64,000 bases of DNA from an uncultured Rhodospirillales bacterium (GTDB taxonomy: Bacteria; Pseudomonadota; Alphaproteobacteria; CAAGCB01; CAG-977). Below, piece after piece: positions 15,552 through 17,163 of the stretch. Location of the stretch: positions 1 to 64,000 of the forward strand of contig CACYSU010000006.1 in the NCBI GenBank assembly GCA_902777205.1, written 5' to 3'. Position 1 is the stretch's first letter; each line of letters starts with the position of its first letter. The notes under the pieces were generated by a model. That model saw only the letters and a list, made by a program, of their open reading frames with translations. It was not told the DNA's origin and did not search any database. The translations under genes were made by a program, and so were the position numbers.

Positions 15552-15583
15552 AAAAAAGGGAGGTTTTCGCCTCCCTTTTTTCT
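15552..15583. terminator. Bidirectional intrinsic terminator
   Basis: Stem GGGAGG (15558-15563) / CCTCCC (15570-15575), loop TTTTCG, with A and T tracts on both sides. It serves the exporter operon on + and the HdeD-like gene on -. Confidence 0.9.
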
Positions 15584-16191: not shown

Positions 16192-16220
16192 TTGGATAAA
16201 TTGATTTTCCGTGCTATAAT
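16192..16220 (+). promoter_or_regulatory. Promoter of the yjhX-yjhQ leader
   Basis: TTGGAT at 16192-16197 and perfect TATAAT at 16215-16220 with a 17-bp spacer. The predicted start site near 16227 leaves only about 10 nt before the leader ORF. Confidence 0.75.
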
Positions 16221-16237
16221 CCCTCTGTTTTAATCCT

Positions 16238-16315
16238 ATGCACAAGAGGGTGTATGTCGGGAATTGCAATCGGTCGGTAACAGGCTTTAACAGCCTTGGT
16301 TGCCGGAAAAAATGA
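16238..16315 (+). CDS. Leader peptide ORF (25 codons) of the yjhX operon
   Basis: ATG 16238 to TGA 16313-16315. The peptide begins MHKRVYVGNCNRSV and ends GCRKK. There is no clear Shine-Dalgarno, and the ATG is about 10 nt from the predicted transcript start. Codons 13-23 run through a stable hairpin (16274-16306), and the stop codon lies inside the 5' arm of an intrinsic terminator (16307-16357). E. coli topAI (yjhX) is, to my knowledge, likewise controlled by a leader ORF (toiL) that responds to ribosome-targeting antibiotics. No peptide similarity to that ORF is claimed. Confidence 0.5.
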   Translation: MHKRVYVGNCNRSVTGFNSLGCRKK

Positions 16316-16357
16316 ACGGCGCTGACGCTTTGTCCGCGCCAAGGTGTTTATTTTTTT
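16307..16357 (+). terminator. Intrinsic terminator within the yjhX leader
   Basis: GGCGC/GCGCC core with a flanking A-tract/T-tract stem and seven T residues, 18 nt upstream of the yjhX ATG. The leader ORF stop codon is embedded in its 5' arm. Confidence 0.6.
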
Positions 16358-16374
16358 GATTGCGGAATTCCGAT

Positions 16375-16632
16375 ATGAATATTTCCAAAGCAGAACAAAG
16401 GACGCTGCACGTCCTCGCACAGGGCGGGCGCATCGTCCACACGCGCGACGATCGGGGCAAAATCACGCAAATCGTTTGCTATAACCGCGACGGTTTCGTT
16501 TTGGCCGATTGCACAATGGCCGTTTTTATGAAATTGCGCGCGAAACGGCTGATTTCGTCGAAACAGGGCGCGCCGTACCGCGTCACGGCCAAAGGATTGG
16601 CCGCCGTGCGTCCCCAACCCGACAACAGATGA
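16375..16632 (+). CDS. yjhX: YjhX/TopAI-family toxin (topoisomerase I inhibitor)
   Basis: 85 aa starting at ATG 16375 ([10 protein letters not shown]). It follows E. coli YjhX along its full length by eye: EQRTLHVLA, the GGRI and CYxRxG stretches, LADCT(L/M)AVF, and the identical C-terminus QPDNR. In E. coli, YjhX binds and inhibits DNA topoisomerase I, and YjhQ is its antitoxin. The gene for a GNAT protein starts 16 bases downstream, matching that gene order. Expression should depend on the leader/attenuator just upstream. Toxicity here is inferred from the family. Confidence 0.88.
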
Positions 16633-16647
16633 AAGAAAGGATTTGAA

Positions 16648-17163
16648 ATGATCATCAGACAAAGAACACTCGCCGACGACGCGGAAATTTACGATGTCGT
16701 CAAACGCGCGTTCGCCGGAATGGAACAGGCGAGCGGCGACGAACAGAACCTTGTCGGCCGGTTGCGGAAAACCGGCGGCTATGTTCCCGAGCTGGATTTG
16801 GTCGCCGAGGACGGCGGCCGGATTGCCGGACACGTTATGCTGACAAAGGTTGAAATCGCCGAAACGCCGCAGCTGATTTTGGCGCCGCTGGCCGTCGCGC
16901 CGGAATGCCGAAACCGCGGGATCGGCGGCGCGCTGATCAAAGCCGGACACGGTGTTGCGAAAAAAGCGGGCTTCGGCTTTTCCGTGCTGGTCGGGCATCC
17001 GGCGTATTATCCGAAATTCGGATACCGTCCGGCCGCTTTGTTCGGGTTGCGGTGCGCGATGGAAATCCCGCCGGAATGTTTTATGGTTTGCGATTTGCAA
17101 AACAGCGGGGCGCGGCTGGACGCCGAGCTGGTCTTTCCGCCGGTCTTTTTCGGGCAAGACTGA
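16648..17163 (+). CDS. yjhQ: GNAT N-acetyltransferase, YjhQ-like antitoxin candidate
   Basis: 171 aa with a complete GNAT fold. The acetyl-CoA motif A is LAVAPECRNRGIGGALI (about 81-97, R-x-x-G-x-G), and a late HPAYYPKFGYRPA segment is typical of the YjhQ/YhbS-type subgroup. A good AAAGGA Shine-Dalgarno precedes the ATG. The position directly after yjhX points to the antitoxin of a YjhXQ pair. Whether acetylation is needed for antitoxicity is not something the sequence shows. Confidence 0.8.
   Translation: MIIRQRTLADDAEIYDVVKRAFAGMEQASGDEQNLVGRLRKTGGYVPELDLVAEDGGRIAGHVMLTKVEIAETPQLILAPLAVAPECRNRGIGGALIKAGHGVAKKAGFGFSVLVGHPAYYPKFGYRPAALFGLRCAMEIPPECFMVCDLQNSGARLDAELVFPPVFFGQD

What the first reader, a model, noticed from the sequence alone, without database searches (positions are those of the whole stretch)
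16192..16374. Attenuator with leader peptide controlling a yjhX (topAI)-yjhQ module
A strong promoter is followed within 10 nt by a 25-codon ORF. The ORF overlaps a stable hairpin (16274-16306), and its stop codon is inside an intrinsic terminator (16307-16357). A five-base antiterminator (16301-16305 with 16317-16321) excludes both. Ribosome stalling early in the ORF should expose the antiterminator and allow toxin-gene expression. E. coli topAI is known to me to be regulated by a different leader ORF that senses ribosome-targeting antibiotics, so the same logic may recur with another mechanism (intrinsic termination).
Basis: partly seen in the sequence, partly recalled or inferred. Interest (0 to 1): 0.74.

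Follow-up and report, generated by a model that had tools for sequence, protein, structure and literature searches.

The report
ToiL-type stalling leader before topAI
The stretch before this toxin gene is an alphaproteobacterial version of the E. coli toiL leader, a tiny eight-codon gene whose RNA is predicted to fold over and hide the toxin gene's start until a stalled ribosome pulls it open, and here it may also carry a built-in transcription stop signal.

Summary
The conserved one is not the 25-codon ORF at 16238. It is an eight-codon ORF, MSGIAIGR*, at 16254-16280, with a Shine-Dalgarno sequence just upstream: the homologue of E. coli toiL (MLENVIIR*, similar position, same length). A ToiL-like ORF lies upstream of 88 of 104 yjhX genes from Alpha-, Beta- and Gammaproteobacteria, against 1.25% of shuffled upstreams. 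The toiL sequence forms a long helix (P1) with the yjhX ribosome-binding site, supported by compensatory changes across ten leaders and by own-versus-foreign arm tests. The main mechanism is most likely the one shown for E. coli: toiL RNA hides the toxin start, and a stalled ribosome frees it. Folding suggests a ribosome at the toiL stop could block it through a 12-bp antiterminator, but the one close relative lacks that switch. Termination and antitermination remain unproven additions.

The parts
16193..16220 (+). candidate sigma-70 promoter, TGGATA - 16 nt - TATAAT with extended -10 (TGC)
   Evidence: 10/12; TATAAT at the matching place in relative L017; start site not mapped
16245..16250 (+). 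Shine-Dalgarno sequence of toiL (AGAGGG)
   Evidence: sequence; AGAGGGTG kept in L017; SD-like 4-mer before 83/88 toiL-like ORFs vs 67/358 other ATGs in the same regions
16254..16280 (+). toiL leader ORF, MSGIAIGR*
   Evidence: ToiL-like ORF in 88/104 yjhX upstreams vs 1.25% of shuffles; E. coli MLENVIIR* at -139; only match in the window's genome to a toiL pattern
16256..16271 (+). P1 left arm, inside toiL
   Evidence: MFE fold; covariation in the family
16275..16305 (+). P2 hairpin; its 5' arm begins in the last toiL codon and stop
16306..16357 (+). P3 hairpin with A-tract and U-tract (16351-16357): candidate intrinsic terminator
   Evidence: not tested experimentally
16293..16345 (+). possible antiterminator: 16293-16300/16338-16345 and 16302-16305/16317-16320
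   Evidence: complementarity reached by 32/1000 shuffles; absent from L017
16358..16374 (+). P1 right arm, containing the yjhX Shine-Dalgarno-like sequence (GCGGAA, 16362-16367)
16375..16632 (+). yjhX (topAI) toxin gene
   Evidence: Pfam YjhX_toxin 2.4e-42; 55% identical to E. coli TopAI
16648..17163 (+). yjhQ-like GNAT acetyltransferase, presumed antitoxin
   Evidence: Pfam GNAT; 34% identical to E. coli YjhQ over 126 aa

Best explanation
This is a toiL leader, the translation-stress switch of topAI-yjhQ. Transcription starts near 16227. The eight-codon toiL (MSGIAIGR*) is translated. In unstressed cells the toiL RNA pairs with the yjhX ribosome-binding site (P1), so the toxin is not made. 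When a ribosome stalls in toiL, for example under ribosome-targeting antibiotics, it holds the left arm of P1, frees the yjhX start, and the toxin operon is translated. Shown here: homology of the uORF, its Shine-Dalgarno sequence and position, and covariation of P1 in the family. Carried over from E. coli: occlusion, stalling, drug response. P3 plus its U-tract may add intrinsic termination where E. coli uses Rho; this step is inferred only.
For: Strict ToiL-like ORF in 88 of 104 yjhX upstreams vs 1.25% of dinucleotide shuffles; consensus M-[SL]-E-[INL]-[VA]-x-x-R-stop, with synonymous variation at codons 2, 5 and Arg. E. coli K-12 itself gives MLENVIIR* at -139, matching the published uORF (8 codons, 139 nt upstream, CTG second, AAT fourth, Val5; PMC12121999). 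83/88 have an SD-like 4-mer vs 67/358 other ATGs. toiL pairs with the RBS zone in 14.6 bases on average vs 3.4 in shuffles, mean fold z -3.6. Own-arm duplex -22.9 vs -18.2 +/- 0.44 kcal/mol with foreign arms, best of 2000 permutations -19.7. P1 on ten leaders including the window: 88.7% of cells paired vs 35-56% when slid; covariation score 0.388 vs 0.275 shuffled, 0 of 500 reach it. The toxin and the GNAT partner are homologues of TopAI and YjhQ.
Against: No expression, ribosome-profiling or structure-probing data for this organism. The window's own P1 is not stronger than shuffles of its right arm (z -0.5), so the case for P1 rests on the family. In one clade (Sphingorhabdus-like loci, e.g. 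L042, L065) the minimum-free-energy fold shows little or no toiL:RBS pairing. In the Sphingopyxis alignment the consensus fold does not include P1 in this form. Only three of 12 genomes of the window's family have yjhX, and one of those leaders is cut by a contig end, so close comparison rests on one relative.
Confidence: 0.85

Rival explanations
1. [quoted passage not shown]
For: P3 + U-tract scores best of 88 leaders and 8th of 42 candidates in the window. With RNA free or a ribosome at the toiL start, the P3 core has probability 0.63-1.0 while RNA ends lie at 16344-16354; with a ribosome at the toiL stop it drops to 0.21-0.34 and the antiterminator reaches 0.9. In E. coli, erythromycin stalls ribosomes at the toiL stop.
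Against: The stem has a 5-nt bulge and its GC core lies well before the U-run, unlike the clean terminators elsewhere in this window (e.g. 15558-15575). The complementarity is reached by 32/1000 shuffles. L017 does not show the switch. E. coli has no such terminator.
Confidence: 0.2
2. ToiL leader by RBS occlusion only; P3 is a structural spacer and premature termination, if any, is by Rho inside yjhX as in E. coli.
For: Most homologous leaders, E. coli included, lack a strong U-tract, yet keep toiL and P1. E. coli uses Rho (PMC12121999).
Against: The T7 run directly after P3 in a GC-rich genome is unusual; 0 of 60 shuffles reached the score.
Confidence: 0.6
3. One reading: the 25-codon ORF 16238-16315 is the leader peptide of a classical terminator/antiterminator attenuator.
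For: The ORF exists and its stop lies in P3.
Against: No Shine-Dalgarno sequence, about 10 nt from the expected start site, start codon absent in L017; a different frame (toiL) is conserved across three classes.
Confidence: 0.02
4. The conservation reflects RNA structure alone and toiL is not translated.
For: Codons 3 and 4 are almost fixed at nucleotide level (GAG 78/88, third base of codon 4 T in 87/88).
Against: Start, reading length (mostly 7-8 codons), Arg-stop, Shine-Dalgarno sequence and synonymous change at codons 2 and 5 are kept; translation shown in E. coli.
Confidence: 0.03

Closest known systems
toiL leader of topAI-yjhQP, Escherichia coli K-12 (Baniulyte and Wade 2025, PMC12121999)
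   Same: Eight-codon uORF at about the same distance (-121 vs -139), same peptide pattern ending in Arg-stop, own Shine-Dalgarno sequence, toiL:topAI RBS helix, same downstream toxin and GNAT gene
   Different: Peptide MSGIAIGR with Ser and Ala instead of MLENVIIR; no yjhP directly downstream; a hairpin with a U-tract (possible intrinsic terminator) between toiL and yjhX; E. coli uses Rho
erm-type (ermC/ermB) macrolide leaders
   Same: Ribosome stalling in a short uORF frees the RBS of the downstream gene (comparison made in PMC12121999)
   Different: Unrelated peptide and structure; regulate rRNA methyltransferases
Amino-acid-operon attenuators (trp, his type; from general knowledge)
   Same: Leader peptide followed by mutually exclusive hairpins and a possible terminator
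   Different: No run of a regulatory amino-acid codon; the conserved element is RBS occlusion

Membership tests
toiL leader | Short (8-codon) uORF with ToiL-like peptide upstream of topAI/yjhX | tested here: met
   MSGIAIGR* at 16254-16280; E. coli MLENVIIR*
toiL leader | Shine-Dalgarno sequence for the uORF | tested here: met
   AGAGGG 16245-16250; 83/88 homologues have an SD-like 4-mer
[quoted passage not shown]
   P1 in the fold and covariation across ten leaders; weak on the window alone
toiL leader | Controls a topAI (yjhX)-yjhQ module | tested here: met
   Position directly upstream of homologues of both genes; control itself not tested
toiL leader | Induced by ribosome-targeting antibiotics through stalling in the uORF | not testable with these tools
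   needs reporters or ribosome profiling
toiL leader | Rho-dependent termination in topAI when untranslated | not testable with these tools
   needs expression data
intrinsic-terminator attenuator | GC-rich hairpin directly followed by a U-tract | tested here: inconclusive
   U7 present, but bulged stem with GC core set back
intrinsic-terminator attenuator | Conserved mutually exclusive antiterminator | tested here: not met
   present in the window by computation, absent from L017

The most novel reading that the evidence does not exclude
In this alphaproteobacterial lineage one eight-codon uORF controls the toxin at two levels: stalling anywhere in toiL frees the yjhX RBS, and stalling at its stop codon also switches an intrinsic terminator off through P2/P3 re-pairing, replacing the Rho step of E. 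coli; different antibiotics, stalling at different codons, would then give graded outputs.
Probability: 0.18. Interest if true: 0.65.

Novelty: new member of a known kind. Interest (0 to 1): 0.45.

Why it matters
It shows that toiL, described in E. coli and its relatives, is an old and widespread leader that travels with the topAI toxin across Alpha-, Beta- and Gammaproteobacteria. The peptide pattern M-[SL]-E-[INL]-[VA]-x-x-R gives natural variants for testing which residues set drug response. In particular, 80 of 88 variants contain Ala, Ser or Thr, which E. coli ToiL lacks and whose absence was proposed to explain why chloramphenicol does not induce topAI.

Tried and rejected
Rfam: no match. 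Leader DNA search in plasmids and in family genomes: only chance short matches. Whole-set MAFFT/RNAalifold on 57 leaders gave no consensus because P2 and P3 differ in length, so P1 was tested by anchored duplex permutation and on a ten-leader alignment instead. The Sphingopyxis-only alignment was too conserved to show P1 covariation and folded differently. Viral contigs hold no yjhX relative. A strict toiL pattern across 372 class genomes found one match of unknown meaning, not examined further (the pattern was too tight, missing known members); a looser form matches only here in the window's own genome. The idea that P1-P3 is a mobile inverted-repeat element was dropped: the leader occurs once in the genome.

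Full report
Observation. The window carries yjhX (16375-16632, Pfam YjhX_toxin 2.4e-42) followed by a GNAT gene; they are 55% and 34% identical to E. coli TopAI and YjhQ. Upstream lies a candidate extended -10 promoter and a leader whose fold is much more stable than shuffles (-57.6 kcal/mol, z -4.4). The fold has three parts: P1, pairing 16256-16271 with 16358-16374; P2 at 16275-16305; P3 at 16306-16357 ending in a U-tract.

The leader ORF. An eight-codon ORF in another frame, MSGIAIGR* at 16254-16280 behind AGAGGG, is conserved. I collected 104 yjhX upstream regions and looked for ORFs of 5-10 codons fitting a ToiL-like start: 88 have one, against 1.25% of dinucleotide shuffles. The pattern was chosen after seeing the sequences, but the gap is far too large for that to matter, and several of the 16 misses are visible variants (for example MLNVSAHR*, MFTIAGNR*). 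83 of 88 have an SD-like 4-mer, against 67 of 358 other ATGs in the same regions. E. coli K-12 read the same way gives MLENVIIR* at -139, which is the published toiL: eight codons, 139 nt upstream, second codon CTG, fourth AAT (PMC12121999).

The helix. In E. [quoted passage not shown] Here the same helix is predicted in most leaders: on average 14.6 toiL bases pair with the RBS zone against 3.4 in shuffles. Each left arm pairs on average better with its own right arm than with arms of other species (-22.9 vs -18.2 +/- 0.44 kcal/mol over 2000 permutations). Against dinucleotide shuffles of the own right arm the mean z is -1.8 over 57 leaders, though the window alone gives -0.5. On a ten-leader alignment with the window, L017, E. 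coli, Salmonella, Acinetobacter, Serratia and Pseudothauera, P1 shows changes on both sides in 7 of 17 pairs; no shuffle reaches its covariation score and sliding the partners destroys the pairing. Related sequences can inflate the shuffle test; the slide control keeps relatedness, but favours a structure derived from the same alignment. The permutation test does not depend on that alignment.

The terminator. P3 with U7 has the best terminator score of 88 leaders, 0 of 60 shuffles reaching it; in the 64-kb window it ranks 8th of 42 candidates, many of which do not follow a gene. Its stem has a bulge and a GC core set back from the U-run, unlike the clean terminator at 15558-15575. E. coli has none and uses Rho. 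Folding of growing transcripts shows that free RNA, or RNA with a ribosome at the toiL start, keeps P3, whereas a ribosome at the toiL stop covers the 5' arm of P2 and shifts the RNA to a 12-pair antiterminator while RNA polymerase crosses the U-tract. The ribosome footprint used is an assumption. That is a neat switch, but the complementarity is reached by 3.2% of shuffles and L017 does not have it. I treat it as an unproven extra.

Conclusion. The element is a toiL leader. The mechanism is inferred from the E. coli work and from the conserved anatomy: translation attenuation by RBS occlusion, released by ribosome stalling. What is added to knowledge is the breadth of toiL (Alpha-, Beta- and Gammaproteobacteria), a consensus peptide, and a candidate intrinsic terminator in this lineage. 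The 2025 paper says the first seven residues are conserved among bacteria with topAI-yjhQP; its figure supplement could not be read here, so how far its authors looked is not known, and its main text does not mention Alphaproteobacteria or Serratia.

Noticed in passing
1410-1985: A tRNA-like gene (about 1413-1487) is followed by repeated pieces: an 85-nt direct repeat (1687, 1804), an 81-nt repeat (1506, 1905) and copies of the tRNA 3' end in both orientations, each with a terminator-like hairpin; looks like duplicated, decaying tRNA-adjacent DNA.
   Followed up: partly
L042, L065, L031 and related loci: In Sphingorhabdus-like loci toiL starts with TTG, and the sequence before it (ACTCGGAG) is complementary to the yjhX RBS region (CTCCGAGT), suggesting that the toiL Shine-Dalgarno sequence itself is the pairing partner there.
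   Followed up: no
L108 (Salmonella plasmid pATCC10717): yjhX with an intact toiL (MLENVIIR*) sits on a plasmid next to two methyltransferase genes and without a yjhQ-type GNAT gene directly downstream in the annotation.
   Followed up: no
16263-16265 (toiL codon 4) and homologues: Codon 4 of toiL varies (ATT, AAT, CTT, ACT, AGT) but its third base is T in 87 of 88, a nucleotide-level constraint not explained by the peptide.
   Followed up: no
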